A stretch of 64,000 nucleotides of DNA from Mauremys mutica (lineage: Eukaryota > Chordata > Testudines > Geoemydidae), in contig NC_059082.1 in assembly GCF_020497125.1 (NCBI RefSeq), positions 49,560,524-49,624,523 on the forward strand, read 5' to 3'. The position numbers and the translations under genes are program-made. Shown in pieces: positions 6,411-59,422 of this stretch. Within the stretch, counting starts at the first letter, position 1; each line of letters begins with the position of its first letter. Under the pieces are notes generated by a model that saw only the letters and a program-made list of their open reading frames with translations, did not search any database and was not told the DNA's origin.

Positions 6411-6946
6411 GCACAGCCAGCATCCCTAGCACTACGATGGGTGTCACTCCATTCACCATGTCCAAACTGAGATCTGTTCTCATAACAGCTTTCTAGGGGG
6501 CATTGCTATTAATACTAATAACACCTTAACTAATTGTATAGAACCTTTCTTCACAAAGTGCTATGCAAACTTAACAGATGGATCTATGAATTATACCCAG
6601 CCATTCCTTACCCACCACTGAAACACAACTCCTGCTAACAGCACACAGCAACATCCACTACAACTTAGAGCAGGAATTGAAGGATATAATGCTGAAATTC
6701 AGCTCTAAGGGGAATGTCAGTAGGCAGGCTGGAATATGGCCAGGGCACTTCAGCTCTTCCAAGAGAGTCCTGAAACTTTTAATGACCACAAGTGCTCAAT
6801 TGTCCTGCTCATCACAGCAACAGTGCCTCTGGAACCGCCTAACACTCTGCAGGGACATTGACTCAATGCAAAACCAGAGGGGATAGTGCCTTTTTCCGAC
6901 CCAACAATGCCATTTGCTGCAGCATTTGAATTTTCCTTAGAGAATA
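6411..6946. other. Flank of the Gypsy element, nothing recognised
   Basis: Unique-looking sequence between the old CR1 and the 5' LTR. It ends in GAATA immediately before the LTR. Confidence 0.4.
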
Positions 6947-7137
6947 TGTTGTGTATTTGGTTGTCATGGTTTTGTTGCTATGGCAACTGAGTTAGATTAT
7001 TATGGGTTAGCTCAACCGGTTTCAACCGGCTGAGGAGCTCTCTGTATATATGTAAATAAAATGGAGGTTTTGGTTAGCTGCCTGCTCTCTGGCCTCAAGT
7101 GATTGCTTCCTACACCGGCTGCCCCAAGGATATAACA
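6947..7137 (+). repeat. 5' LTR of the mag-type Gypsy element
   Basis: Starts TGTTGTGT and ends ATATAACA. It carries a TATATA stretch near 7045-7051 and an AATAAA at 7055-7060, so promoter and polyadenylation signals lie close together. It is identical to 11368-11558. Confidence 0.95.
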
Positions 7138-7138
7138 C

Positions 7139-7158
7139 TGGCGACGAGGGTGGGATTC
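7139..7158 (+). promoter_or_regulatory. Primer binding site, tRNA-Ser-like
   Basis: TGGCGACGAGGGTGGGATTC begins one base after the LTR. From memory of vertebrate tRNA-Ser(GCT), it complements that tRNA's 3' end including CCA with a single mismatch. Serine tRNA priming is typical of mag-lineage elements. Confidence 0.75.
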
Positions 7159-7261
7159 CGGTGCTGCTCCAGTAACAGAAGGAAGTAGAAGTCAAGGTAA
7201 AGACCAAACAAAGGAAAAAAGCTGCTTCTTTGCACTGACTGTGAAAGTGAAACTAAAAATC

Positions 7262-10200
7262 ATGGCTACTCTGACCAGGCCCCTGGAGCCTTTTGATGAG
7301 AATACAGAGCAGTGGCATGTGTATACTGAGCGTTTTGAGCTTTTTGGTATTGCAAATGACATTACAGAAGCGAAGAAGGTGCCAATATTCTTAACTGTTG
7401 TAGGGGCTAAAACCTACTCTCTGCTACGCAGCTTACTACACCCTGTTAAGCCTGAGACTAAATCTTACAGTGACATTGTGGAAATCCTGGGGTCTCATTT
7501 CTCCCCAAAGCCACTGGTAATTGCTGAAAGATATAGGTTCCACAAAAGAGACCAAAAGGAAGATGAAACAGTTGTACAATTTGTAGCCATTTTAAAAAAG
7601 CTAGCAGAACACTGTGAATTTAAAGAAATGTTACATGATGCCCTGCGTGACAGGTTAGTGTGTGGCCTGTACAGTGAAGCTATACGGAAGCGCCTACTGA
7701 CAGAGGCTCAGCTTACCTTACAGAAGGCTGTTGATATTGCTGTCTCCATGGAACTGGCTACAAGGGAGGCACAATACATCGGTGCACCCCCTAGGGTGCA
7801 AAAAGTGTCACAAGAACCGACCCACAAAACTGTGCAGAGTCAAGAATGTTACCGTTGTGGTAAGCCGGGTCACCAGGCATCAGAATGCTGGTGTAAGGAC
7901 CTGGTGTGTCGACACTGTGGCAAAAAGGGACACATTGAGTGTGCCTGTAAACAAAAGAAAAAGAGGCCTGTGGTCTGGCTGACAAAAAGAGGAACCCTGC
8001 ATACCCTAGAGCAGACCCAGGATGATCAAGGTGACACCTCATCGCAAGAGGAAGTGCCACTGCATGTTTTGTCTTTGGCAATGGGCTCACATGAATACTG
8101 GGTAACCCCGTTATTGGATGGCAAACGTATACGCATGGAACTGGACACCGGTGCAGCCGTCTCACTGATCTCCGAGACTGTGTATAAAGAAAAGCTACAG
8201 CATCTTCCGCTTAAGGCAACAAAAACTGTTCTGAAGACGTATACGGGTGAAGCTGTGCCTATGCTGGGCACTATTGATGTTAAGGTGGAGCTCAATGGAC
8301 AGGTGGCTAAATTGCCACTGTTTGTGGTGAGAGGTAACTACCCAGCCTTAATGGGTAGGTCTTGGCTTGGGAAGATTCAACTGAACTGGGCAGAAGTGCA
8401 CCGGATGACTAAAGAAGAAACCAGTCTAACCCCTATACTAAGGAAACATGCTGCTGTTTTTGGAGATGATTTGGGAAGTATGAAGGGAATCACTGTGACA
8501 TTGAACATTAAACCTGGCAGTCCACCAAAATATCTGAAAGCCCGAACTGTGCCATATGCCATCAGGCCAAAAGTTGAAGCAGACCTGGAGCGCCTGGTCA
8601 CCAATGGAGTCCTAATACCAGTTACCCATAGCTCATGGGCCACTCCTATCGTTCCAATCGTGAAGAAAGATGGCTCTCTCCGGATTTGCGGTGATTTTAA
8701 AGTCACTGTCAACCCAGTGTTGTGTGCAGAGCAATACCCGCTTCCCCGCATCGATGACCTCTTCGCAGGCCTGGCTGGGGGACAAAAGTTCAGTAAGATT
8801 GATCTGAGTCAAGCATATTTACAGATGCACGTCGATGAAAAGTCCCAAGAGCTGTTGACTATTGTGACTCATAAGGGGCTTTATCGATACTGTCGTCTAC
8901 CCTTCGGAATAACATCTGCTCCCGCCCTGTTCCAGAGGGCTATGGACCAGATCTTGTGTGGCTTGTCAGGAGTTCAGTGCTATCTGGATGATATCCTGGT
9001 CACTGGAAGAAATGAAGAGGATCACTTAAAGAATTTAGAGGCTACCCTACAAAGACTGGAAGAGTATGGCCTACGAGTTCGCAAAGACAAGTGTGAATTC
9101 TTCAAGCCCTCTGTTGAATATTTGGGACACATCATTGATTCTGCAGGTCTTCATAAGGCCCCTGCAAAAGTTAAAGCTATTGTGGAGGCTCCCCCACCTC
9201 GAAATGTAAGCCAGCTGCGCTCGTTTCTAGGACTCCTGAACTATTATGGAAAGTTCATCTCACAGTTAGCCACACTGCTAAAACCACTTCATGAGCTCCT
9301 TGGGCAGAACAAGGCCTGGAAGTGGACTGAAGCCTGTGATGTTGCGTTTAACAAAGCTAAGGATGCATTGCTAAATTCTGAAGTTCTAACGCACTTTGAT
9401 CCATCCTTACCACTGCAATTGGCCTGCGATGCCTCCCCTTATGGAGTGGGAGCAGTCGTGTCACATATTATGCCTTCAGGAGAAGAGAGACCTATTGCTT
9501 TTGCTTCACGCACTCTAAGCAAAGCAGAAACTAACTACGCCCAAATCGAACGTGAGGCATTAGGAATTGTTTTTGGAATTCGGAAGTTTCATCAGTACCT
9601 GTTTGGGCGAAAATTTACTCTTCTCACAGACCATCGACCTCTGACATCAATTTTTGGACCTTACACAGGCATTCCCCCATTAGCCGCTAGTCGTATGCAA
9701 CGTTGGGCATTGTTACTTTCAGCACACACATATGAAATCAAATATCGGAAATCCACTCTACACGGCAATGCAGATGGCCTCTCAAGGTTGCCTTTGCCGG
9801 TCAAACACCACGATAGTGCCCACAAGGAAATCTTCTACTTTGAACAGGTAGAGAATACACCCATCACTGCTACTCAGATAAAGAAGGCAACTCGTGTTGA
9901 CCCAGTATTGTCCCACGTTATGGACCTGGTGATGCATGGAACATCTCGACAAACCTCTCCGGTCTCATCCGACCTTGTTCCCTACATGTCCAAGCGGACG
10001 GAGTTATCGGTCCAATCTGGTTGTTTGTTGTGGGGGAGACGTGTCATTATTCCACCACCACTGAGATCACAGATGTTAGAACAGCTACATTCCGGTCACT
10101 GTGGAATAGTGCGCATGAAGGAAATTGCACGAAGCTATTTTTGGTGGCCTGGACTGGACAGCGCTATTGAAGAGAAGGCAAAAGCTTGTATGTCATGTCA

Positions 10201-11236
10201 GGGTGTGAGGAATGCACCCCAGTGGGCACCCCTACACCCATGGGACTGGCCTGAAAACCCGTGGCAACGTATTCACATTGACTTTGCTGGCCCCCTTGAA
10301 GGAAGCATGTTCTTGGTGGCAATAGATGCCCATTCTAAATGGCCAGAAGTCTCTATAATGCAGTCCACTTCTGCAGAGAGTACTATCCAAAAACTACGAG
10401 GACTCTTTAGTCGTTTTGGTCTGCCAGAACAACTTGTGAGCAACAACGGACCGCAGTTCGTTTCTCAGGAGTTTCAAAATTTTATGAAAGCAAATGGGAT
10501 ACACCACATCACGTCAGCACCATATCATCCGTCCACCAACGGATTAGCTGAAAGATTTGTGCAGACAATGAAAAACGCTTTGAAATCAGCAAGGGGACAA
10601 CACTCCATTCAAAAGCGTCTGGATACCTTTTTACTTTCCTACAGAAACACACCTCATGCTACGACCCACGCATCTCCGGCCTTTCTAATGATGGGACGAC
10701 AGCTGCGCACTTGCTTTGATCTGCTGAAACCTTCTGAACCCCGACAAATTGTGCAACATCAGCAGCAATATCAAGTCATCAGACGGGCACCCAGAGCAAA
10801 AGACCGAACCTTTAGCCCGGGACAGCCAGTTTTGGCTCAGAATTATACTTCCAGAGCTAAATGGGTTCCGGCCACAGTCATCACTCAAACAGGACCTGTT
10901 TCCTACACAGTCCGGACTGCAGAGAATCTTACCTGGCGGCGACATGTAGATCAGCTGTTGCCAGGTCATGCCAGTCCTCAGGACCCATCTGCAGTTGAGG
11001 GGTCTGACTTCACCTCTTCTGGTGAGGGATCGAATCACGAGTCACCTGTTTCTGACTGTTCTCCTCCATTACTGCCGGCGGCTGAGATACCCCTTTGCCC
11101 AGCACGAGCTGATACCACCTCCTCACCTGTTCATGCTGCAGACCCTGAGCCCCTAGTGCTTTCGGGTGCAACAACACCAGTAGTTCGCCGTAATCCACCT
11201 AGTGACAGAAGGCCTCCTCATCGGCTGGATCTTTAG
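7262..11236 (+). CDS. Gag-Pol polyprotein of the mag-type Gypsy element
   Basis: A 1,324-residue uninterrupted frame encoding all retrotransposon proteins. The start is ATG 7262 (A at -3, G at +4); the open frame upstream to 7241 begins with GTG, not ATG. Gag fills about residues 1-230 and ends in two CCHC zinc knuckles (196-209 and 216-229). The protease motif DTGA is at 295. RT has CYLDDILV with YLDD at 574-577. RNase H follows, with DAS, EREA, TDH and NADGLS motifs. Integrase has an HHCC finger (near CMSCQ) and a core in which D1007 and E1097 are present, but the expected second Asp, in the DNG motif, is Asn1061 (codon AAC 10442-10444). The N1061-E1097 spacing is 35 residues, as in DD35E. 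Integrase is therefore predicted to be inactive while the rest looks functional. No frameshift separates gag from pol. Confidence 0.95.
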   Translation: MATLTRPLEPFDENTEQWHVYTERFELFGIANDITEAKKVPIFLTVVGAKTYSLLRSLLHPVKPETKSYSDIVEILGSHFSPKPLVIAERYRFHKRDQKEDETVVQFVAILKKLAEHCEFKEMLHDALRDRLVCGLYSEAIRKRLLTEAQLTLQKAVDIAVSMELATREAQYIGAPPRVQKVSQEPTHKTVQSQECYRCGKPGHQASECWCKDLVCRHCGKKGHIECACKQKKKRPVVWLTKRGTLHTLEQTQDDQGDTSSQEEVPLHVLSLAMGSHEYWVTPLLDGKRIRMELDTGAAVSLISETVYKEKLQHLPLKATKTVLKTYTGEAVPMLGTIDVKVELNGQVAKLPLFVVRGNYPALMGRSWLGKIQLNWAEVHRMTKEETSLTPILRKHAAVFGDDLGSMKGITVTLNIKPGSPPKYLKARTVPYAIRPKVEADLERLVTNGVLIPVTHSSWATPIVPIVKKDGSLRICGDFKVTVNPVLCAEQYPLPRIDDLFAGLAGGQKFSKIDLSQAYLQMHVDEKSQELLTIVTHKGLYRYCRLPFGITSAPALFQRAMDQILCGLSGVQCYLDDILVTGRNEEDHLKNLEATLQRLEEYGLRVRKDKCEFFKPSVEYLGHIIDSAGLHKAPAKVKAIVEAPPPRNVSQLRSFLGLLNYYGKFISQLATLLKPLHELLGQNKAWKWTEACDVAFNKAKDALLNSEVLTHFDPSLPLQLACDASPYGVGAVVSHIMPSGEERPIAFASRTLSKAETNYAQIEREALGIVFGIRKFHQYLFGRKFTLLTDHRPLTSIFGPYTGIPPLAASRMQRWALLLSAHTYEIKYRKSTLHGNADGLSRLPLPVKHHDSAHKEIFYFEQVENTPITATQIKKATRVDPVLSHVMDLVMHGTSRQTSPVSSDLVPYMSKRTELSVQSGCLLWGRRVIIPPPLRSQMLEQLHSGHCGIVRMKEIARSYFWWPGLDSAIEEKAKACMSCQGVRNAPQWAPLHPWDWPENPWQRIHIDFAGPLEGSMFLVAIDAHSKWPEVSIMQSTSAESTIQKLRGLFSRFGLPEQLVSNNGPQFVSQEFQNFMKANGIHHITSAPYHPSTNGLAERFVQTMKNALKSARGQHSIQKRLDTFLLSYRNTPHATTHASPAFLMMGRQLRTCFDLLKPSEPRQIVQHQQQYQVIRRAPRAKDRTFSPGQPVLAQNYTSRAKWVPATVITQTGPVSYTVRTAENLTWRRHVDQLLPGHASPQDPSAVEGSDFTSSGEGSNHESPVSDCSPPLLPAAEIPLCPARADTTSSPVHAADPEPLVLSGATTPVVRRNPPSDRRPPHRLDL

Positions 11237-11352
11237 CTAGGGCGAACCTACGGTTATGGGGCAAAATAATCCCCAGGGTTTAGCCGGGAATGGAGGCAGT
11301 CTACCCTCCTTCTCTAGTCTAGTGTGTGTTTTATTTAGGGGATGTTCTTATT
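11237..11352 (+). other. 3' untranslated part of the Gypsy element
   Basis: Short non-coding stretch between the gag-pol stop codon and the polypurine tract. Confidence 0.7.
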
Positions 11353-11364
11353 AGGGGGGGAGGA
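11353..11364 (+). promoter_or_regulatory. Polypurine tract
   Basis: AGGGGGGGAGGA lies three bases before the 3' LTR and is the expected primer site for plus-strand DNA synthesis. Confidence 0.85.
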
Positions 11365-11367
11365 ATA

Positions 11368-11558
11368 TGTTGTGTATTTGGTTGTCATGGTTTTGTTGCT
11401 ATGGCAACTGAGTTAGATTATTATGGGTTAGCTCAACCGGTTTCAACCGGCTGAGGAGCTCTCTGTATATATGTAAATAAAATGGAGGTTTTGGTTAGCT
11501 GCCTGCTCTCTGGCCTCAAGTGATTGCTTCCTACACCGGCTGCCCCAAGGATATAACA
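11368..11558 (+). repeat. 3' LTR of the mag-type Gypsy element
   Basis: Identical in all 191 positions to the 5' LTR. Its AATAAA is at 11476-11481. Confidence 0.95.
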
Positions 11559-12067
11559 GTCTCCCAGCCAAATGCTGACCCAGTAGAAGCCTGCTCAGCT
11601 TGTGGGACAAAACCACAGCACATGACAGCAGACAGAGATAAGGAAATAGATAGGTGACCACAAGGACAGCAATTCTACCCACAAAGCATTTCCTTTCACC
11701 TTCCTATAATAATTGTCCAATAGGTAAAGCATGCCCAGCACCTCAGTAGCACAGAGCCCCTTGACGCTATGCTGGGGTACTGGGAGAGGAAGGGCAGTGC
11801 TACAGCAGGGCAACACAATGCAATAATGTTGGAAGGTGAGTGAGGTCTGAGTTGTGGAGGACAGTAGCTCTGGGCCCTAATAGTATCTATTGGAAGAAGG
11901 AGCTTGCTTGATTATGCAAATTTTCACCCCAAAACAAGACAAAACGCCCTGCTCCAAACAAATTTCTACAACCTGAAAAGGGCGGAGAGCTGGAGACTCC
12001 ATGAAGTCCACTAACAACTTGGCTATGGTCAATATATTTCATGTGGAAGGCACCCAGACACTAGCAT
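11559..12067. other. No gene recognised
   Basis: Unique-looking DNA right of the Gypsy insertion. The first bases, GTCTC, do not repeat the left flank. Confidence 0.45.
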
Positions 12068-39229: not shown

Positions 39230-40966
39230 CATAGAATCATAGAATCATAGAATCTCAGGGTTGGAAGGGACCTCAGGAGGTCATCTAGTCCAACCCCCTG
39301 CTCAAAGCAGGACCAAACCCAACTAAATCATCCCAGCCAGGGCTTTGTCAAGCCTGACCTTAAAAACCTCTAAGGAAGGAGATTCCACTACCTCCCTAGG
39401 TAACCCATTCCAGTGCTTCACCACCCTACTAGTGAAAAAGTTTTTCCTAATATCCAACCTAAACCTCCCCCTCTGCAACTTGAGACCATTACTCCTTGTT
39501 CTGTCATCTTCTACCACTGAGAACAGTCTAGATCCATCCTCTTTGGAACCCCCTTTCAGGTAGTTGAAAGCAGCTATCAAATCCCCCCTCATTCTTCTCT
39601 TCTGCAGACTAAACAATCCCAGTTCCCTCAGCCTCTCCTCATAAGTCATGTGCTCCAGCCCCCTAATCATTTTTGTTGCCCTCCGCTGGACTCTCTCCAA
39701 TTTATCCACATCCTTCTTGTAGTGTGGGGCCCAAAACTGGACACAGTACTCCAAATGAGGCCTCACCAGTGCTGAGTAGAGGGGGATGATCACATCCCTT
39801 GATCTGCTGGAAATGCCCCTACTTATACAACCCAAAATGCCATTAGCCTTCTTGGCAACAAGGGCACACTGTTGACTCATATTCAGCTTTTCGTCCACCG
39901 TAACCCCTAGGTCCTTTTCTGCAGAACTGCTACCCAGCCATTCGGTCCCTAGTCTGTAGCAGTGCATGGGATTCTTCCGTCCTAAGTGCAGGACTCTGCA
40001 CTTGTCCTTGTTGAACCTCATCATATTTCTTTTGGCCCAATCCTCTAATTTGTCTAGGTCCCTCTGTATCCTATCCCTACCCTCCAGCGTATCAACCAGT
40101 CCTCCCAGTTTAGTGTCATCTGCAAACTTGCTATGGGTGCAGTCCACACCATCCTCCAGATCGTTAATGAAGATATTGAACAAAACCGGCCCCAGCACCG
40201 ACCCTTGGGGCACTCCACTTGATACCGGCTGCCATCTAGACATGGAACCATTGATCACTACCCGTTGAGCCTGACCATCTAGCCAGTTTTCTATCCACCT
40301 TACCGTCCATTCATCCAGCCCAGACTTCTTTAACTTGCTGGCAAGAATACTGTGGGAGACTGTATCAAAAGCTTTGCTAAAATCCAGAAATAGTACATCC
40401 ACTGCTTTCCCCTTATCCACAGAGCCGGTTATCTCGTCATAGAAGGCAATTAGGTTAGTCAGGCATGACTTGCCCTTGGTGAATCCATGCTGACTGTTCC
40501 TGATCACTTTCCCCTCCTTTAAGTGGTTCAGGATTGATTCCTTGAGGACCTGTTCCATGATTTTTCCAGGGACTGAGGTGAGACTGACTGGCCTGTAGTT
40601 CCCTGGATCTTCCTTCTTCCCTTTTTTAAAGATGGGCACTACATTAGCTTTTTTCCAGTCATCCGGGACCTCCCCCGATCGCCATGATTTTTCAAAGATA
40701 ATGGCCAATGGCTCTGCAATCTCATCGGCCAACTCCTTTAGCACCCTCGGATGCAGCGCATCTGGCCCCATGGACTTGTGCTCGTCCAGCTTTCCTAAAT
40801 AGCCCCGAACTACTTCTTTCTCCACAGAGAGCTGGTCACCTCCTCCCCATACCGTGCTGCAGAGTGCAGCTGTCTGGGAGCTGACCTTGTCTGTGAAGAT
40901 AGAGGCAAAAAAAGCATTGAGTACACTAGCTTTCTCCACATCCTCTGTCACTAGGTTCCCTCCCTA
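39230..40966 (-). mobile_element. Young, 5'-truncated CR1 LINE
   Basis: A 1.74-kb CR1 in minus orientation inserted in the older CR1. Its 3' end shows the CATAGAAT repeat (39230-39254) and the 5' end stops near 40966, inside ORF2. Its 3' 170 bases differ from the CR1 at the window's right end at only about one position apart from the tail, so the family was active recently. Confidence 0.95.
39323..40951 (-). CDS. CR1 ORF2 protein, C-terminal part with intact RT
   Basis: A 542-residue open frame for the second half of CR1 ORF2, without stop or frameshift. It includes the region before RT, the RT domain (motif [12 protein letters not shown] with Asp190; motif [11 protein letters not shown] at 246-255; active site FADD at 276-279), and the C-terminal domain with [15 protein letters not shown]. 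The N-terminal endonuclease is missing because of 5' truncation, so the ATG at 40951 is an internal Met, not the native start. RT would reverse-transcribe LINE RNA at the target site, but this copy cannot do so alone. Confidence 0.93.
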
Positions 40967-41580: not shown

Positions 41581-41752
41581 TATCCCACACTGCACCACTC
41601 TGTTGACGCTCTGGACAGCAGTCCGAGCTTGGATTCTCTGCCCAGCCACACAGGAAATGACCCGCGAAAATTTGAATTCATTTTCCTGTCTGGGCACTTT
41701 GAATCTGACGTTCTGGTTGCACATCGGGGTGAGCTCCGCAGCACCTGCAACG

Positions 41753-43625
41753 ATGCAGAGCTCTCCAGCAGAGGAGTCCGGGCAATCCCAGAATAGAAAG
41801 AGGTCCCCAGCATGGACTGACAGGGAAGTCATGGATCTGATCGCTGTGTGGGGTGAGGAGTCTGTGCTCTCGGAGCTGCGCTCCAGCAAGCGGAACGCGA
41901 AGACCTTCGAGAAGGTCTCGAAAGCCATGAAAGAGAAAGGATACAGCCGGGATGCGATGCAGTGCCGCGTGAAAGTCAAGGACCTAAGACAAGGGTATCA
42001 AAAAGTCAGAGCGGCAAACGGACGCTCCGGAGCACAGCCCCAGACATGCCGCTTCTACGAGGCACTGCATGCCATTTTCTAGGTGGGTCTGCCACAACTG
42101 CCCCACCAGTGACGGTGGACTCCGAGGACGGAATAGTGTACCGGGACAGTTCCTCCTCGATGTTCGCCAATGGGGAAGATGAGGAAGGGTCTTTTGAGGA
42201 CGGCGCAGGCGACAGCGAACACACTCCCGCTTTCCCTGACAGCCAGGATCTCTTCATCACCCTCACAGAGATCCCCTACCAACCCTCCCCTGCCGTTAAC
42301 CCGGACTCGGAATCAGGGGAAGGATCAGGCGGTAAGTGCTACACACGTATAAACATTTATTTTTTATAACATTGTTATAGAAAAAATAGAAACTGTATTT
42401 ACAAAATTCTAAATATTAAACTACATGAAGAGAAGGTCCACACAAATGGGGATAGAAAAATAATCCTCTAGCGACATTTCCACGAAGGTGTCATTCAGTT
42501 CCTCGCAAAGCCTCCGCATGAGGTTCGTCAGAAGAGGTGCCTTGTTGGGCGCTCCGTGGAAGCAGACTCTTCCACGCCAGGACATCCGAATATAGAGTGG
42601 AACCATTGCCTCGACTAGCATTGCTGCATATGGTCCTGGTCTGTGCAGTGCGTCCCGTAACAACCTGTCTTTCTGGGCACGAGTGACCCGCCTCAGGGTG
42701 ATCTCGTTCTGCAAATACTGCATCTAAGTAGGGCAATTAGTGTAGTGTTACTATTGTTAATGGTTTACAATTAGGTTGCATAACAATGACCCTCGCCTAA
42801 CAGCCACGTGCGAGAGGCCACAGAGAACAAGCATCCATTGATCGTTCCCGTGCACTGGCGGGAGGGGCTGCAAAAGGCTCATCCTTTCTGCTTTGCACAT
42901 TGCCTTTAGCAGGAGAGCACAGCTAACCACTAACTGATAAGCAGTATGTACTGTAAGGCTTACCAGGACTTTGTGCAAGAGGGATGCAGCTGTCTTTCCT
43001 CGCTTGTGCGCTCTCCAGTGCAATGGCGCCGCCAATGAGAGCGTATTCCGAAATCTCGGACTAGTTCTGAGATCTCCTGAGACTTGGTTCCCTCTTTGGT
43101 CTTGTTAACTGAAACTGACTAGACTGTGTTTACTGTTGGCAAACATGTATGTGTTCAAGGAAATCACCTACTTTTTCGCATCACACAGCTTCGGCTCTTT
43201 CCCGGACTGCCCCGGCATCCCCCTCGCAGAGGCTGGCTCAGATTAGACGCCGAAAGAAAAAGACTAGGGACGACATGTTCCAGGAACTGATGGCCTGCTC
43301 CAGAGCGGAGGCGGCAGAGCAGAGACAGTGGAGGGAGACCCTGTGTCAGCAGCATCGCACACACATGGAACGGGAGGATAGGTGGCAGCAGGAAGACCAG
43401 CAGGCGACTCAAACGCTGCTTGGTCTAATGAGGGAGCAAACGGACACGCTCCGGCGCCTTGTAGATGTTCTGCAAGACCGCAGGCAGGAGGAGAGAGCCC
43501 CCCTGCAGTGCATCTGCAACCGCCCTCCAACGCCAAGAAGTCCTGTCCCCCCCTCACCCAAAGTTACAAGAAGGAGGGGCGGTAGGGGCCGTGAGAACTG
43601 TCCCTGCACCGCAGCAGACCGCTAA
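41753..43625 (+). CDS. Myb/SANT-like Harbinger accessory protein, two exons, one frameshift
   Basis: Exon 1 begins at ATG 41753 and encodes a trihelix Myb/SANT-like DNA-binding domain (SPAWTDREVMDLIAVWGEE ... CRVKVKDLRQGYQKVR). A frame change near the T run at 42075-42078 creates a TAG at 42080; beyond it the protein continues in another phase with an acidic, Ser-rich linker. A donor (G|GTAAGT, intron from 42332) and acceptor (CACACAG, intron to 43188) join the linker in frame to exon 2 (43189-43625). Exon 2 is a basic start (RRRKKKTRDD) followed by a long Gln/Arg-rich helix, probably a coiled coil. ATTAAA at 43727-43732 may be the polyadenylation signal. In Harbinger elements such a protein helps the transposase bind DNA and enter the nucleus. 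The frameshift probably disables this copy. The intron is predicted only from splice-site patterns. Confidence 0.8.
42421..42723 (-). CDS. Antisense ORF inside the Myb gene intron, unknown
   Basis: A 100-residue minus-strand frame starts with ATG right after CCCTACTTAG, a good splice-acceptor pattern. It ends 60 bases before a minus-strand AATAAA (42361-42356). An upstream minus-strand donor pattern (CCTG|GTAAGC near 42959) would fit a two-exon transcript. The sequence has even spacing of hydrophobic and charged residues (for example RRVTRAQKDRLLRDALHRPG and LTNLMRRLCEELNDTFVEM). I do not recognise a family. It may be a third Harbinger gene or chance. Confidence 0.4.
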   Translation of the reverse strand: MQYLQNEITLRRVTRAQKDRLLRDALHRPGPYAAMLVEAMVPLYIRMSWRGRVCFHGAPNKAPLLTNLMRRLCEELNDTFVEMSLEDYFSIPICVDLLFM

Positions 43626-44541: not shown

Positions 44542-45801
44542 TCACAGGTTACCCTGCTCTGCGAGGAAACTCGCTTTCAAAGCCTCCCTGATGCACATCG
44601 CTTCCCGCTCGGCACGGGTGTCTGGCTGATCGTAAACAGCAGCCAGGCGATTTGCCTCAACCTCCCAAGCGGCCAAAAAGGTCTCGCCCTTGCTCTCATA
44701 TAGATTGTGGAGCACACAGCAAGCAGCAATAACTACTGGGATATTCTTTTCGCTGATGTCCGAGCGAGTCAGTAAGCTCCACCATCTCCCCTTGAGACGT
44801 CCGAAAGCACACTCCACCACCATTCTGCACTTGCTCAGCCGGTAGTTGAAGAGTTCCTTCGCACTGTCCAAGGCGCCTGTATAGGGCTTCATGAGCCAGG
44901 GCATTAGCGGGTAGGCCGGGTCCCCGAGGATCACTGTAGGCATCTGCACATCCCCAACCGTTATTTTGTGGTCCGGGAAGAAAGTACCTGCCTGGAGGCG
45001 TCTAAACAGACCAGAGTTCCTGAACACACGCGCGTCATGAACCTTGCCCGCCCACCCGACGTTGATGTTGGTAAAACGTCCCCTATGGTCCACCACAGCT
45101 TGCAGCACCATTGAAAAGTAGCCCTTTCGGTTAATGTACTCGCTGGCCTGGTGGGCTGGTGCCAGGATAGGGATGTGAGTCCCATCTATAGCCCCACCGC
45201 AGTTTGGGAATCCCATCGCGGCGAAGCCATCTATGATGACCTGGACATTTCCGAGAGTCACTACCTTTGAGAGCAGTTGCTCAACGATTGCGTGGGCTAC
45301 TTGAATGACAGCAATCCCCACGGTAGATTTGCCCACGCCAAAGTGGTTCGCTACTGACCGGTAGCTGTCTGGCGTTGCTAGTTTCCAGAGAGCAATGGCC
45401 ACTCGCTTATGCACACTCAGGGCTGCTCGCATGCGTGTGTCCTGGCGCTTCAGGGCAGGGGACAGCAAGTCACACAGTTCAAGGAAAGTGCCCTTACGCA
45501 TCCTGAAGTTTCGCAGCCACTCTGTGTCATCCCAGACCTGCAGCACTATGCGGTCCCACCAGTCTGTGCTTGTTTCCCGGGCCCAGAATCGCCGTTCCAC
45601 ACCATGAACGTGACCCATTGCCACCATGATCTCCACTGCCCGGCGTACCCTGCTTTCTGAGAGGTCTGTGCCACTCTCCTCACCGCGCTGCCGGAGCCTC
45701 CTCGCCCAGTTTCTCAGCAGCTGACTGTTGCAGAGGTGGACGATAAGGTGCGAGGAGTTGACAACGGCCATAAGTGCAGCGATGATCGCAGCAGGCTCCA
45801 T
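44542..45801 (-). CDS. Harbinger DDE transposase (HARBI1-like)
   Basis: A 419-residue intact protein; the frame stays open upstream to an ATG at 45975, but ATG 45801 has the stronger context (A at -3, G at +4) and the extra 58 residues look like leader. The N-terminal half is helical, with a helix-turn-helix-like region near SYRSVANHFGVGKSTVGIAV. The C-terminal half is a DDE_Tnp_4-type nuclease: Asp206 in GAIDGTHIPI, Asp294 in LGDPAYPL and Glu330 in VVECAFGRLKGRW, with 35 residues between the last two. All three catalytic residues are present. The enzyme would cut at the inverted ends and insert at TTA or TAA targets. A minus-strand AATAAA lies at 44397-44392. HARBI1, the domesticated vertebrate relative, is about 350 residues; the length here is typical for a mobile transposase. 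Confidence 0.93.
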   Translation of the reverse strand: MEPAAIIAALMAVVNSSHLIVHLCNSQLLRNWARRLRQRGEESGTDLSESRVRRAVEIMVAMGHVHGVERRFWARETSTDWWDRIVLQVWDDTEWLRNFRMRKGTFLELCDLLSPALKRQDTRMRAALSVHKRVAIALWKLATPDSYRSVANHFGVGKSTVGIAVIQVAHAIVEQLLSKVVTLGNVQVIIDGFAAMGFPNCGGAIDGTHIPILAPAHQASEYINRKGYFSMVLQAVVDHRGRFTNINVGWAGKVHDARVFRNSGLFRRLQAGTFFPDHKITVGDVQMPTVILGDPAYPLMPWLMKPYTGALDSAKELFNYRLSKCRMVVECAFGRLKGRWWSLLTRSDISEKNIPVVIAACCVLHNLYESKGETFLAAWEVEANRLAAVYDQPDTRAEREAMCIREALKASFLAEQGNL

Positions 45802-46049
45802 GCTCGCAGTGATGTGGCGTCCGCGCTGTAACCGACCAGACAAGGGCGCGAACAGATTTCCCGCCGGCGCTTTCAGGGAGGGAGGGCGTGATTGACGGTT
45901 CAATGACGACAGTAACCGAAAACCACTCTCGACACATTTTTTCACCCAGCAGGCATTGCGAGCTCTACCCAGCATTCCAATGGGCAGCGGGGACTGCGGG
46001 AACTGTGGGATAGCTTCCCACAGTGCACCGCTTCCAAAGTCGACGCTGG

Positions 46050-52996: not shown

Positions 52997-53951
52997 TGTG
53001 TAGTGAGGCGGCCTGGGTCCCAGCTGCGCCTGAGAGGGCCGAGCCAGAACGGATGCCACAGTGGGCGGAGCCACCACCGCCTGTTCCCGCCCCCGGAAGT
53101 CAAGGGGCGGGACAGGAAGTATAAAGGCCCAGCCCCAGCGGTCAGTTGACGGCTGGCTGCCAGAGAGGACAGACACTAGTGCTCTAGCTCCCGCTGGGCC
53201 GAGCCTGCCCCAGGCTCGCTACCTTGAGGAGGATTGGCCGAGCCTGCCCCGGGCTTGCCACCCAGAGGAGCTGTCTGAGCTTCCCCTCACCCAGTATCCT
53301 GAGGAGCAGCCCGGCTTACCCAGCGCTCAGTACCCTGAGGAGCCCATGGTGTGGGACACTGCGGAAGACGCTGGGGATGTACAGGTACCAATGGAGGGGG
53401 AGAGTGGAAGTGGCCCGGGGGTAGCCGACCCTAGTCCGGCTGCAGCAGACCCCGAGCCAATGTCAGTGTGTTGCAGCCAGGATCCCCACTGACACAGCAG
53501 CTGACTGACTGCTGCTGTTAGGGCCCTGGGCTGGGACGCAGTGGAGTGGGTGGGCCTGCGTCCCCCCTGCCACCCCCTTCCCGGGTGGCAGTCTCCCCCT
53601 CACATCAACGCTCAGGCGTAAGAGCCTGGACTTACCGTAGTCAACTGCTTGCTGCCCCGCCCTGCTCAAGGCTTATGTACTGTACTGTACTCTTCGTCTG
53701 CTCAGCCCCTGCCTGAGGGTCTGAGCCCTGAACTACTGTTTGTCTTCTCAGCCCCTGCCTGGGGGTCTGAGCCCCTGAACTACTGTTTGTCTGCTCAGCC
53801 CCTGCCTGAGGGTCTGAGCCCCTGAACTACTGTTTGTTCGCTCAACGCCCTGCTGAAGGGTCTGGACCCTGATATACTGGCTGTTTGTAGTGAGGCGCCC
53901 TGGGTCCCAGCTGCGCCTGAGAGGGCCGAGCCCTGACACCGGACGTCCACA
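52997..53951 (+). repeat. 5' LTR of the Gmr1-like element
   Basis: Starts TGTGTAGTGAGG and ends GGACGTCCACA. A GC-rich promoter with TATAAA at 53120-53125 is visible. Three 46-bp repeats (CTGCTCAGCCCCTGCC...) lie at 53697-53840. The first ~45 bases of the LTR recur near its right end (53885-53931). Confidence 0.85.
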
Positions 53952-53953
53952 CG

Positions 53954-53970
53954 TGGTGCCTTCTCTGAGG
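53954..53970 (+). promoter_or_regulatory. Primer binding site, tRNA-Met-like
   Basis: TGGTGCCTTCTCTGAGG follows the LTR by two bases. From memory it complements the 3' end of a vertebrate elongator tRNA-Met with one mismatch over 17 bases. Confidence 0.6.
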
Positions 53971-53983
53971 AGTTCCGCCCAGG

Positions 53984-54979
53984 ATGTGGGCACGAACTCT
54001 CAACTCTGGTGAGAAGGGGGCTGGGGGAGAGAGAGTCCCCTCCCGAGAGTTGGACCTGTCCCAGCTCCTTGCCCTCGTGACCGAGAACCAAGAGCGGCAG
54101 CAGGCGGCCCAGTCGCGGCAGCAGCAGGAGCAGCAGGCCGCCCACCTGCAACAGCAACTGCAACTTGTCGAGCAGCTGGGAACCCAGCAGCACCAACTGC
54201 TCCAAGAACTGATCACCCAACATCAGGAGTTCCAACGCCAATGCATCCAGCAGCTCGCAGCGGCTCGGTCCATGTCGGAGCAGCCCCAGCCGGGGGGCCC
54301 AGGCGGGACCCCGCGGTCCACTCCCCCGATCCAGCTGACAAAGATGGGCCCCGGCGACAACCCCGAGGCCTACCTCGTCACGTTCGAGCGGGTGGCGGTC
54401 GTCGCAGGGTGGGCCCGCGACCAGTGGGCTGCCATCCTGGCCCCTTACCTGACAGGGACCGCTCAGGCGGTCTATTGAGGCCTGTCTGTGGAGGCAGCCC
54501 AGGATTACGACCGGGTGAAGGCCGCAGTCCTAGATGCCCTAGATGTGAGCCCGGAGATGTTCTGACAGCGATTTAGAAGCCTGTCCTACCCCGTCGGGGC
54601 CCGGACCCGTATGGTGGCCCAGGAACTCCGCGAGACCTGCAAGCGCTGGTTGCAGCCAGAACGCCGAACGGCGGAGGAGATAACGGAGCAAGTGGTGCTT
54701 GAACAGTTCACCCACATCCTTCCCCCGCGGGGCAGGGCCTGGGTCCTCCACCATCGGCTGGCGACCTTGGCTGCCGCCGTTTCACTGATGGAGGACTTCC
54801 TTGCAGCTGAAGTACCGGTGGGCCCAGCGGTTCGAGCAGCCCCACCGGGGCAGAGCGCCCTAGCTCCGAGAAGAAGATGGCACTCGCCCGGGCCGACGGA
54901 CGAGTTACGGGTCGGGTGGCGGAAGTCCAGACCCGTCCCATGGCAGCCCCTGGGTGACCCGCTCGGACCCCGATTCTGA
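53984..54979 (+). pseudogene. Gag of the Gmr1-like element with SCAN-like capsid segment
   Basis: Begins at ATG 53984. The first part is a Gln-rich coiled coil (residues ~40-85), then a capsid region. TGA stops interrupt at 54476 and 54563. The part from about 54500 to 54805 ([61 protein letters not shown]) looks like a SCAN domain. This fits the known idea that SCAN arose from the capsid of a Gmr1-like element. A frameshift near 54850 separates it from the zinc knuckle. As Gag it would have packaged the element's RNA. Confidence 0.85.
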
Positions 54980-55059
54980 CGGCACGGGGGGGGGGGCGGA
55001 ACCTTCCAGGCAACAACCCCGGGGCCCGGCCTCGGTCCGGACGAACGGACCTGGGGCCC

Positions 55060-55101
55060 TGTTTTTCCTGCGGGGAGTCTGGCCATCTACAGCGGGACTG
55101 C
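55060..55101 (+). pseudogene. Gag zinc knuckle
   Basis: The CCHC motif CFSCGESGHLQRDC is read in a different phase from the preceding capsid, so an upstream frameshift cut it off. It would bind the element's RNA. Confidence 0.8.
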
Positions 55102-55179
55102 CCCGGACTCGAGTGCACCTTCGGCCAGGTCTGTTCAGGGGAAGCCCATGCCCGGCGATCCCAGGCAGTCAAGATCACC

Positions 55180-55623
55180 GTGCCCACGATGGTTGAGGGG
55201 TACTCGACAACGGCCCTCCTCGACTTGGGATGTGGACAGATGTTGATCCGACAACGTTTGGGTCCGCCGGCTGATGCTCATCTGGGAAAAATCCGGCTAC
55301 AATGCATCCACGGGGACATCCGACCTTACCCCAGCGCCCGGACCCAACTGACAGTTGATGGGGTCACCCGCTCGATGGTGGTGGGGGTGGCGCCGCGGCT
55401 GGCATATCCGGTGATCCTGGGCCAGGACTGGCCCGAGTTTCCCGCAGTCCTATGCCGCTATGCCGGGGAGGGCCCGGAGCCCATGCCAGCCTTGGGAGGG
55501 GAGCCCCCAGAAGTCGAGGTAGACGAGCCGTACGCCCTCGACCGCGCCGACCGGCCGGGAGGGTTGGAGGACATCCCCGTGGGAGAGGTGGAGGATCCCT
55601 CGGCCCCCACGGATTTTTGCTGA
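55180..55623 (+). pseudogene. Aspartic protease region
   Basis: A 147-codon open stretch with the retropepsin-like segment ALLDLGCGQMLI. The catalytic Asp-Ser/Thr-Gly is changed to Asp-Leu-Gly (codons 55222-55230; TTG where TCG is expected, a CpG-type change), so activity is probably lost. VILGDWP-like spacing further on fits the protease end. It ends at a TGA (55621) that blocks read-through into integrase. Confidence 0.75.
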
Positions 55624-56860
55624 GACCAAAGGGCTGACCCTACACTCAAGCAGGCATATGAACAACTGGCCACCGTGGATGGGACCATCCTCAATCCCGG
55701 CCAGGCGGCACAGTGGCCGCATTTTGAGTTGAGACGAGAGAGCCTGTACCGGGTCAAGAAGGACCCTTACACCGGGGAGCCCCGGACCCAACTCCTCGTG
55801 CCCCGATGTCATCGGCGGGCAGTCTTGAGACTGGCTCACGACGTCCCAGCGGCCGGGCACCTGGGCCATGAAAAGACACTGGCCCGGATACTGGGGCGCT
55901 TCTTTTGGCCGGGTATATATCAGGAAGTAAAATGCTACTGCAGCTCCTGCCCCAAGTGGCAGCTGGCCACCCCAGCAAGAACTCCCAAGGCACCCCTAGT
56001 GCCCATGCCGGTAATCGAGACCCCCTTCGAGCGCGTGGCTATGGATCTAGTAGGGCCTCTCCCCAAGAGCGTTGCAGGGTTTCAATACATCCTGGTTATG
56101 CTGGACTATGCAACCCGGTTCCCCGAGGCGATTCCCCTGCGAAACATCACAGCCCGCACTATCGCAGGTGAGTTGGTGAAGATCTTCACCCGTGTCGGCC
56201 TGCCCCGGGAGATCCTCACAGACCAGGGGACCAATTTTACCTCGCGATTACTACACCAAGTGTGTGACCTCCTGGGGATCAAGCAGCTGCGGACGTCAGT
56301 ATACCATCCCCAGACCGACGGATTGGTCGAAAGGTTCAATCGGACCTTAAAGGACATGCTGCGCAGATTCCCCCAGCAGGACCTCCGCCGATGGGACTAC
56401 TCCCACCCTTGCTTTTAGCGGTACAAGAGGTCCCCCAATCGTCGACCAAATTTTCGCCATTTGAATTGCTGTACGGCCGCCGGCCCCGGGGTCTCTTGGA
56501 CCTGATGCGGGAGACCTGGGAGCAAACCCCATCCCCCGCCCAAGGTCTTTTGAAATACGTGATCCAGCTGCAGGAGCGTCTTAGGCAGGCGGGGGCCCTG
56601 GCCCGAGAGAATTTGAAAGCCACCCAAGAAACACAAGCCCAGAGCTACAATCGGGACACCCAGACCCGCGACTTTCAACCCAGGGACCGGGTCCTTCTTC
56701 TTCCCTCCACCGAGTCCAAGCTCCTGGCTCGGTGGCAGGGACCGTATGAGGTGGTTAGAAAAGTAGGCCCAGTCACCTACGAGATCAACCAGCCCGACCG
56801 GCGAAAGAAGCTACAGCGATACCATATTAACCTTCTCAAGCCCTGGCGGGAACGAGAAGC
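55624..56860 (+). pseudogene. Integrase, placed before RT
   Basis: An HHCC finger (AHDVPAAGHLGHE ... CYCSSCPKWQ) is followed by the catalytic core. Asp codon 56044-56046 (MDLVGPL), Asp codon 56221-56223 (LTDQGTNF) and Glu codon 56329-56331 (DGLVERFNRT) are all present, with 35 residues between the last two. A frameshift near 56400 moves the frame to the next stretch (56391-57137), which carries the C-terminal part with a GPYEVVRKVGPVTYEI region. The catalytic triad survives but the protein is broken. Confidence 0.9.
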
Positions 56861-57019
56861 CCTTTTGATCAACCTCTACCCACCAGAGCCTGAGCTCGGA
56901 CCCCAGATAACCCACACCGAGGACCCGGAGGGGCCCCAGCTTGGGGAGACACTGACGGAGGCACAGCTTAAGCAAACCCGGTGCCTCCTACAAGCATTCT
57001 CCTGCACTTTCACGGCCCA

Positions 57020-57670
57020 ACCAGGATACACCACCCTGGTACATCATAGGATTCAGACGGAACCTGGGGTGGTGGTCCAGGGCACAACTCGGCCCCTGCC
57101 CTATCATAGGAGACGTATTGTCGACGAGGAGGTATGAAATATGTTAGACTTGGGGGTGATTGAACCCTCGCAGAGCAAGTGGCGTAGCCCTGTGGTGCTG
57201 GTCCCAAAGCCCGATGGCTCCCAATGGTTCTGCATCGACTTCAGGTGCGTCAATGCCCTCTCCAAGTTCGATGCATACCCCATGCCCCGGATAGATGAGT
57301 TATTGGCCCGGCTAGGAGAGGCCCGTTATATCACTACCCTGGATTTAATTAAGGGGTACTGGCAGATTCCCCTCGATCCAGCTTCCAGGGAGAAGACAGC
57401 CTTCGCCACCCCTACGGGCCTCTATCACTTTACCCAGATGCCCTTCGGCCTCCATGGGGCCCCGGCTACCTTCCAGCGCCTGATGGACCGCCTCCTCCAG
57501 TCACATCAGAAGTACGCTGCGGCCTATCTGAACGACGTGGTCATCTACAGCCGCCACTGAGAGAACCACCTAGAACGGGTTGCTGCCGTCCTGAGGTCCC
57601 TGCGGGCGGCCGGGTTAACGGCCAACCCTAAGAAGTGCCGCATTGGCTGGCAAGAAACCACCTACCTGGG
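57020..57670 (+). pseudogene. Reverse transcriptase of the Gmr1-like element
   Basis: RT motifs appear after integrase: FCIDFRCVNALS, TTLDLIKGYWQIPL (first catalytic Asp), FATPTGLYHFTQMPFGLHGA and AAYLNDVVIYS. The active site is YLND rather than YLDD (57525-57536), removing one metal-binding Asp. TGA stops at 57135 and 57558 and a frameshift near 57640-57670 break it further. The missing Asp alone would abolish activity. Confidence 0.9.
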
Positions 57671-58381
57671 TACACCATCGGAAACGGACAGGTGAAACCC
57701 CTTGTGGACAAGGTTCAGGCCGTTGCAGCCTGTCCTCCGCCAGCCACGAAACGCCAAGTACGTCAGTTCTTGGGGCTGGCGGGGTATTATCAACAGTTCA
57801 TTCCCCAGTTCGCCGCGATCGCCGCTCCCTTGACGGGGCTCCTAACCAAGAACAGCCCGCAACAAGTGAAGTGGACCCCCGAGTGTGACGAGGCCTTTCA
57901 AGCACTTAAAGCAAGTCTCTGCCAGAAGCCAGTCCTGTATAGCCCCGATTTTGACCAGCCATTCATCCTGCAGACGGACGCCTCGGAGGTGGGGCTCGGG
58001 GCTGTCCTCTCCCAAGAGGTGGACGGGGAAGAGCACCCGGTCCTCTACATCAGCCGGAAGCTGTTTCCCCGAAAGGAAAATTATGCGGTAGTTGAAAAGG
58101 AAGCCCTCTCCGCGAAGTGGGCTTGCGATGCCCTGTGGTACTACCTCCTTGGGGCGCTGTTCACCTTGGTCACCGACTACGCCACCCTCCAGTGGTTGGC
58201 CCGCATGAAGGACCATAACATGCGGCTGCAGCAATGGTACCTAGCGCTGCAGCCCTATGCCTTCACCGTTCGCCATAGGGCCGGGAAGGACCATGCAAAC
58301 GCGGACTTCCTTTCCCGCCTGGGGGGGTATGGAAGAGTCTGGCCCCGCTGCACAGGAGCCAGCCTTGGGGTGTGTGTGTAG
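57671..58381 (+). pseudogene. RT thumb and RNase H of the Gmr1-like element
   Basis: Open from 57635 to the TAG at 58379. It includes the connection (RQFLGLAGYYQQFIPQFAAI) and RNase H with QTDASEVGLG, EKEALSAK, VTDYATLQWL and NADFLSRLGG. The four acidic residues are kept; TDY replaces the usual TDH. The frame ends in the start of the 3' LTR, and no gene follows RNase H, confirming that integrase is not at the end. Confidence 0.88.
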
Positions 58382-59422
58382 GGAGGTGGCCTGGGTCCCA
58401 GCTGCACCTGAGAGGGCTGAGCCTGAGCGGAGCCACCGCCGCCTGTTCCCGCCCCCCGGAAGTCAAGGGGCGGGACAGGAAGTATAAAGGCCCGGCCCCA
58501 GCGCTCAGTTGACGGCTGGCCGTCAGAGAGGACAGACTCTAGTGCTCTAGCTTCTGCTGGGCCGGGCCTGCCCCAGGCTCGCTACCTTGAGGAGGACTGG
58601 CCGAGCCTGCCCCGGGCTCCCTACCTGGAGGACTGGCTGAGCCTGCCCCGGGCTCGCCGCCCAGAGGCGCTGTCTGAGCTTCCCCTCGCCCAGTATCCTG
58701 AGGAGCAGCCAGGCTTACCCAGCGCTCAGTACCCTGAGGAGCCCATGGTGTGGGACACTGCGGAAGACGCTGGGGATGTACAGGTACCAATGGAGGAGGA
58801 GAGTGGAAGTGGCCCAGGGGTAGCCGACCCTAGTCCGGCTGCAGCAGACCCCGAGCCAATGTCAGTGTGTTGCGGCCAGGATCCCCACTGACACAGCAGC
58901 TGACTGACTGCTGCTGTTAGGGCCCTGGGCTGGGACGCAGTGGAGTGGGTGGGCCTGCGTCCCCCCTGCCACTCCCTTCCCGGGTGGCAGTCTCCCCCTC
59001 ACATCAACGCTCAGGTGTAAGAGCCTGGACTTACCGTAGTCAACTGCTTGCTGCCCCGCCCTGCTCAAGGGCCGGGGCTTATGTACTTTGTCTGCTCAGC
59101 CCCTGCCTGAGGATCTGAGCCCCTGAACTACTGTTTGTCTGCTCAGCCCCTGCTGAAGGGGCTGAACTTTAAACTGCTGATTGCCCCGCCCTGACCCAGG
59201 GCCTGGGCTTATAGACTGTTTGTTTGCTCCACCCCTGCTGAAGGGTCTGAGCTTTAAACTGCGGATTGCCCTACCCTGACCCAGGGCCTGGACATATAGA
59301 CTGTTTGTTCGCTCAACGCCCTGCTGAAGGGTCTGGACTCTCACCTACTGGCTGTTTGTAGTGAGGCGCCCTGGGTCCCAGCTGCGCCTGAGAGGGCCGA
59401 GCCCTGACACTGGACGTCCACA
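58375..59422 (+). repeat. 3' LTR of the Gmr1-like element
   Basis: Same layout as the 5' LTR (TATAAA 58483-58488) but 93 bp longer, because of extra repeat units at 59100-59320 and one extra unit near 58610-58650. Numerous single-base differences from the 5' LTR show age. Confidence 0.85.

What the first reader, a model, noticed from the sequence alone, without database searches (positions are those of the whole stretch)
10280..10552. Near-perfect young Gypsy element with the second integrase Asp changed to Asn
Seen: identical LTRs and a 1,324-codon open frame, but the DNG motif reads NNG (codon AAC 10442-10444, residue 1061), 35 residues before Glu1097. Known: all three acidic residues of a DDE integrase are needed for strand transfer. 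Inference: a very recent copy already disabled by one base change, or a copy that depends on integrase supplied by a sister element.
Basis: partly seen in the sequence, partly recalled or inferred. Interest (0 to 1): 0.8.

Follow-up and report, generated by a model that had tools for sequence, protein, structure and literature searches.

The report
Turtle Gypsy copy with decayed integrase
A young jumping-gene copy in a turtle genome has lost a key amino acid of its integration enzyme through a common kind of DNA decay that has hit many sister copies separately, so it is an ordinary damaged copy and not a new mechanism.

Summary
In detail: a Ty3/Gypsy element (window 6947-11558) with identical 191-bp LTRs and an open 1,324-codon frame reads Asn (AAC, 10442-10444) at the second integrase Asp. 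Its own genome (G000, turtle by nearest proteins) could be searched. A 30-mer around the site occurs 1,331 times with Asp; 100 of 102 listed CpG-decayed forms are 26 Asn, 71 silent and 3 with both changes. On a tree of 47 copies the 13 Asn copies need 11 changes, about as many as shuffled labels; the window's weakly supported sister carries Asp. Besides the codon, 5 of 11 window departures in 2,609 bases lie in CpG columns. Asp>Asn stands at 1.9% genome-wide, near missense (1.1%) and stop (1.4%) decay at other CpGs in 29 close copies. Best reading: recurrent methyl-CpG decay of single copies, probably after insertion. A lineage moved in trans is not supported. One oddity stays: the window copy has no 5-bp target-site duplication and five PPT-side letters at its 5' end, which leaves a small chance of an integrase-independent insertion.

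The parts
6947..7137 (+). 5' LTR, 191 bp, TGTTG...TAACA
11368..11558 (+). 3' LTR, 191 bp, identical to the 5' LTR
7262..11236 (+). single gag-pol frame, 1,324 codons: zinc knuckle, protease (hits below Pfam's cut-off), RT, RNase H, integrase zinc domain, integrase core
10280..10552 (+). integrase catalytic core from first Asp (1007) to Glu (1097)
10442..10444 (+). AAC (Asn1061), where 350 of 355 listed related proteins have Asp
10441..10442 (+). decayed CpG: the family's usual letters here are C-G, the window reads C-A
11353..11367 (+). purine-rich stretch (PPT by position, recalled convention) plus GAATA just before the 3' LTR
   Evidence: read directly
6942..6946 (+). GAATA before the 5' LTR, the same five letters as before the 3' LTR; not repeated after the 3' LTR
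11559..11563 (+). GTCTC after the 3' LTR: no 5-bp target-site duplication

Best explanation
The window holds one of well over a thousand copies of a turtle Ty3/Gypsy (K02A2.6-like) LTR retrotransposon family whose integrase usually has Asp at this codon. Shown: the usual letters are AGC-GAC, so the codon begins inside a CpG; the same base has changed repeatedly and separately in different copies; the window has further losses at CpG sites. Inferred: methyl-cytosine deamination on the minus strand changed this copy to AAC, most likely after an ordinary insertion, leaving an integrase that cannot do strand transfer. No propagation of the Asn form is needed.
For: Counts: exact 30-mer with Asp 1,331; of 102 matches to a probe with both CpG bases changed, at up to 1 mismatch, 100 are listed: 26 Asn, 71 silent, 3 both. 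Tree without the codon: 13 Asn copies of 47 need 11 changes (shuffled mean 11.6; 204 of 500 shuffles as low); starred branches force at least 7. Six young Asn copies, the window among them, each share variants with Asp copies: the window shares 9811C with L015 and L019 and 11172C with L015, though 11172C also with the Asn copy L009. CpG columns: 6 of 12 window departures in 160 of 2,609 columns, p=3.6e-5; without the focal site 5 of 11, p=2.8e-4. Other coding CpGs, 29 close copies against L023: stop 5 of 348 cells (1.4%), missense 32 of 2,813 (1.1%), silent 30 of 1,073 (2.8%); focal site genome-wide: Asp>Asn 26 of 1,357 (1.9%), silent partner 71 of 1,402 (5.1%). Of the 26 Asn copies both ends were found in 24, and 20 have a perfect 5-bp target-site duplication, 19 different 5-mers.
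Against: Methylation was not measured. Whether the change came before or after insertion is not shown for the window. The window lacks a target-site duplication and has GAATA at its 5' end, which ordinary insertion plus decay does not explain by itself. Its sister grouping with L015 (97/73, zero-length branch) is below the tool's star. L010 and L030, both Asn, are drawn together, with 90/0 support and zero length. The other 13 Asn loci and the 3 with both changes were not put on the tree. The two rate sets compared differ: one search uses close copies, all copies that keep the 30-mer.
Confidence: 0.9

Rival explanations
1. An integrase-dead sublineage is carried in trans by integrase from sister elements, and the window is one member.
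For: At least 26 Asn copies exist at different sites, and 20 of 24 with both ends found have target-site duplications. The Mauremys reevesii protein P0002 also has Asn. Complementation of a D116N virus with added integrase is a known laboratory assay in HIV-1 (PMC9601147, passages).
Against: The 13 Asn copies on the tree scatter, and the six young ones share variants with Asp copies. Asn is less common than the silent change at the same CpG. P0002 is at most 96.1% alike over its full length to any fetched copy, the best being an Asp copy (97.7% over 307 of 740 residues to another), so it is not shown to be the same lineage.
Confidence: 0.04
2. The window copy was inserted without integrase: a cDNA from an already Asn-bearing source, with five extra bases at its U3 end, was joined into a break.
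For: No 5-bp target-site duplication; GAATA before the 5' LTR equals the five bases before the 3' LTR.
Against: Five matching letters can be chance. 4 of 24 Asn copies and 2 of 25 Asp copies lack a perfect duplication; on the first 34 copies the contrast was 3 of 13 vs 1 of 21, p=0.27, L025 with one mismatch counted as having it. No close Asn source copy was seen among fetched copies, but the search made for it did not complete. L088 shows that tandem copies exist, with PPT letters before an LTR.
Confidence: 0.05
3. Sequencing or assembly error at one base.
For: Only the assembly was available; no reads.
Against: The same AAC stands in 25 other listed copies, and the window has five further departures in CpG columns.
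Confidence: 0.01

Closest known systems
Ty3/Gypsy K02A2.6-like elements of turtles and fishes
   Same: Same domains; over integrase residues 930-1160, 96% and 94% identity to the turtle proteins P0002 and P0003, and 74% to the best named fish proteins
   Different: Asn at the second catalytic Asp (P0002 shares it, P0003 does not)
HIV-1 integrase D116N
   Same: Asp to Asn at the second residue of the triad; called a catalytically inactive class I mutant in passages of PMC9601147. That D116 is the matching residue is recalled; one search shows the match for PFV.
   Different: A laboratory mutant; here a natural genomic copy, activity untested
Methyl-CpG decay of transposon copies (recalled as general knowledge)
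   Same: G>A or C>T at CpG, recurrent over copies
   Different: No difference seen; methylation itself not measured

Membership tests
Ty3/Gypsy LTR retrotransposon | Direct LTRs with TG...CA ends | tested here: met
   191-bp identical LTRs
Ty3/Gypsy LTR retrotransposon | Order protease-RT-RNase H-integrase | tested here: met
   Pfam hits in that order; the protease hits are below Pfam's cut-off
Ty3/Gypsy LTR retrotransposon | Copies of the family flanked by 5-bp target-site duplications | tested here: met
   43 of 49 copies with both ends found. The window copy itself does not have one (GAATA vs GTCTC)
Active DDE integrase | D, D, 35 residues, E | tested here: not met
   D, N, 35 residues, E
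Trans-mobilised integrase-dead lineage | Asn copies form a group with shared derived changes | tested here: not met
   11 changes for 13 Asn copies among 47; 13 further Asn loci not on the tree
CpG decay | Change at a CpG, recurrent, at a rate like other CpGs | tested here: met
CpG decay | Cytosine methylated in the germ line | not testable with these tools
   needs methylation data

The most novel reading that the evidence does not exclude
The window copy is a natural integrase-independent insertion: an RNA encoding a dead integrase was reverse transcribed, and its cDNA, with five unprocessed bases at the U3 end, was captured at a chromosome break without target-site duplication.
Probability: 0.05. 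Interest if true: 0.4.

Novelty: already known. Interest (0 to 1): 0.12.

Why it matters
It shows how one codon across more than a thousand sister copies, with a silent change of the same CpG as a built-in control, tells decay from inheritance. The finding itself is an ordinary inactivated copy. If the integrase-independent reading were true, it would be a natural example of end-joining capture of retrotransposon cDNA.

Tried and rejected
Trans-mobilised Asn lineage: not supported by the tree and the counts. Asn copies as integrase-independent insertions in general: rejected, 20 of 24 with both ends found have target-site duplications. P0002 as the same insertion as a fetched copy: not shown. 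Scans of viral contigs and of prokaryote genome contigs found no relative. Rfam at gathering thresholds and ARAGORN found nothing in the window. Papers: one search listed 2 papers for turtle Gypsy insertion dating, neither read; some searches gave listings; one search gave none for its five terms. Only passages were seen of PMC9601147 and PMC8220671. One further CpG control was asked and never answered, nor was a search for the window's nearest copies, on copies in hand, took the place of the first.

Rows dropped: L012 was left out of the tree as too short; L029, L034 and L035 are the same copies as L010, L009 and the window; L001-L008 were not used, being shorter fetches. 5' LTR or both LTRs not found: Asn copies L080/L081 and L090/L091; Asp copies L012, L058, L102. 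In one search the LTR difference of L094/L095 was not computed. One Asn place (C1:190583943) lies outside the 26, having another change in the 30-mer. Copies were partly chosen for Asn, so 13 of 47 or 48 is no frequency.

Full report
What is there. The window carries a Ty3/Gypsy element with both ends: LTRs of 191 bp at 6947-7137 and 11368-11558, identical, and a single frame 7262-11236 of 1,324 codons with zinc knuckle, protease (hits below Pfam's cut-off), RT, RNase H, integrase zinc domain and integrase core. The second Asp of the integrase triad reads Asn (AAC at 10442-10444, residue 1061), with D1007 and E1097 in place and 35 residues between N1061 and E1097. PFV integrase has Asp opposite this residue.

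Relatives. Three protein searches gave 355 distinct listed proteins (the best 120 of 1,257, of 3,547 and of 1,496, with overlaps). At this residue 18 of 19 turtle proteins have Asp; the exception is P0002 of Mauremys reevesii, with Asn. Of 336 others, 332 have Asp and 4 Asn. So Asp is the rule, and Asn turns up now and then.

The window's own genome. The window lies in G000, 2.48 Gb; the best protein matches are turtles. A 273-base integrase piece gave 1,015 candidates, of which 40 were scored; 3, the window included, were identical to it, Asn included. A 41-mer around the codon matched 1,448 times with up to 2 mismatches, 11 of them exact and hence Asn. A 30-mer with Asp occurs 1,331 times exactly. 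A probe with both bases of the CpG changed, at up to 1 mismatch, matched 102 times; of the 100 listed, 26 are Asn, 71 carry the silent change of the same CpG, and 3 carry both changes and so are Asn too. The Asn count is a lower bound, since copies with further changes in the 30-mer are missed.

One origin or many. For 47 copies over 2,606 columns, with the codon left out, 13 Asn copies need 11 changes of state; shuffled labels need 11.6 on average and 204 of 500 shuffles do as well; starred branches alone force at least 7. By shared variants the six young Asn copies belong with Asp copies: the window with L015 and L019, L009 with L014 and L025 among others, L032 with L043 and L058, L036 with L041 and L055, L010 and L030 with L022. 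Some of these links are thin: the window's pairing with L015 has 97/73 support on a zero-length branch, it shares 11172C also with the Asn copy L009, and L010 with L030 are drawn together at 90/0. Overall the change is recurrent.

Why it recurs. The usual letters are AGC-GAC, and the change removes the CpG. In 17 close Asp copies a CpG has decayed in 1.1% of cells per direction, against 0.29% departures per base elsewhere. Six of the window's 12 departures lie in the 160 CpG columns of 2,609 (p=3.6e-5); without the focal site, 5 of 11 (p=2.8e-4). In 29 close copies set against L023, leaving out the focal CpG, decay per opportunity was 1.4% for stops, 1.1% for missense and 2.8% for silent changes. 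Genome-wide the focal site gives 1.9% for Asp>Asn and 5.1% for its silent partner; this set also holds older copies, so the ratios compare better than the levels. The deficit of Asn against silent (26 vs 71, p=5.5e-6) is like the general deficit of missense and stop changes, as expected if silent changes can be inherited through source copies while damaging ones mostly arise after insertion; that last step is inference.

Insertion marks. The 26 singly changed Asn copies were checked for ends: both LTR ends were found in 24, and 20 have a perfect 5-bp duplication; those without are the window, L009 (3' end lost), L039 (3' LTR cut) and L088 (tandem arrangement). Of Asp copies both ends were found in 25, and 23 have it; L025 has one mismatch and L026 has none. 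So most Asn copies look put in by normal integrase action (inference). The window has GAATA before and GTCTC after, and GAATA equals the five bases before its 3' LTR. Chance, a lost duplication, recombination between copies, a trimmed tandem, or an integrase-independent insertion could each give this; I could not decide.

Age. Identical LTRs are common here: 10 of 19 copies, the window included, and 15 of 47 over, the later sets holding older copies. With the window's end branch of 0.0031 per site, 1.2 LTR differences are expected and none has a chance of about 31%. The copy is young but need not be brand new. Frames of at least 1,300 codons are found in 8 of 20 other fetched copies.

Verdict. 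An ordinary inactivated copy. That Asn here abolishes integration is inferred from HIV-1 D116N, called catalytically inactive in passages of PMC9601147, and was not tested for this protein. The trans-complementation idea is not supported.

Noticed in passing
window 53090-58926: A second Gypsy-type element with repeated ends (92-97% alike) and a frame in pieces, in which the integrase piece (55675-56418) lies upstream of the RT piece (57141-57560, by reading only) and the RNase H piece (57635-58381). This is the order described for Gmr1 elements (PMC8220671, passages).
   Followed up: partly
window 41603-42082 (+) and 44542-45975 (-): A Myb/SANT-like protein frame and a DDE_Tnp_4 transposase frame facing each other, as in Harbinger-type DNA transposons (name recalled).
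   Followed up: partly
window 39323-40951 (-): A 542-aa reverse transcriptase frame that looks like a CR1-type LINE (recalled), with further partial copies in the window.
   Followed up: partly
L088 (G000 C9:75656700-75657400): An Asn copy whose first LTR found is preceded by the purine tract, which suggests a tandem LTR-body-LTR arrangement.
   Followed up: no
window 6942-6946 and 11559-11563: No target-site duplication; GAATA at the 5' junction equals the letters before the 3' LTR.
   Followed up: partly
P0135, P0141, P0242 (Lepidochelys sea turtles): Arg instead of Gly two residues after the catalytic Asp, possibly decay of the next CpG along.
   Followed up: no
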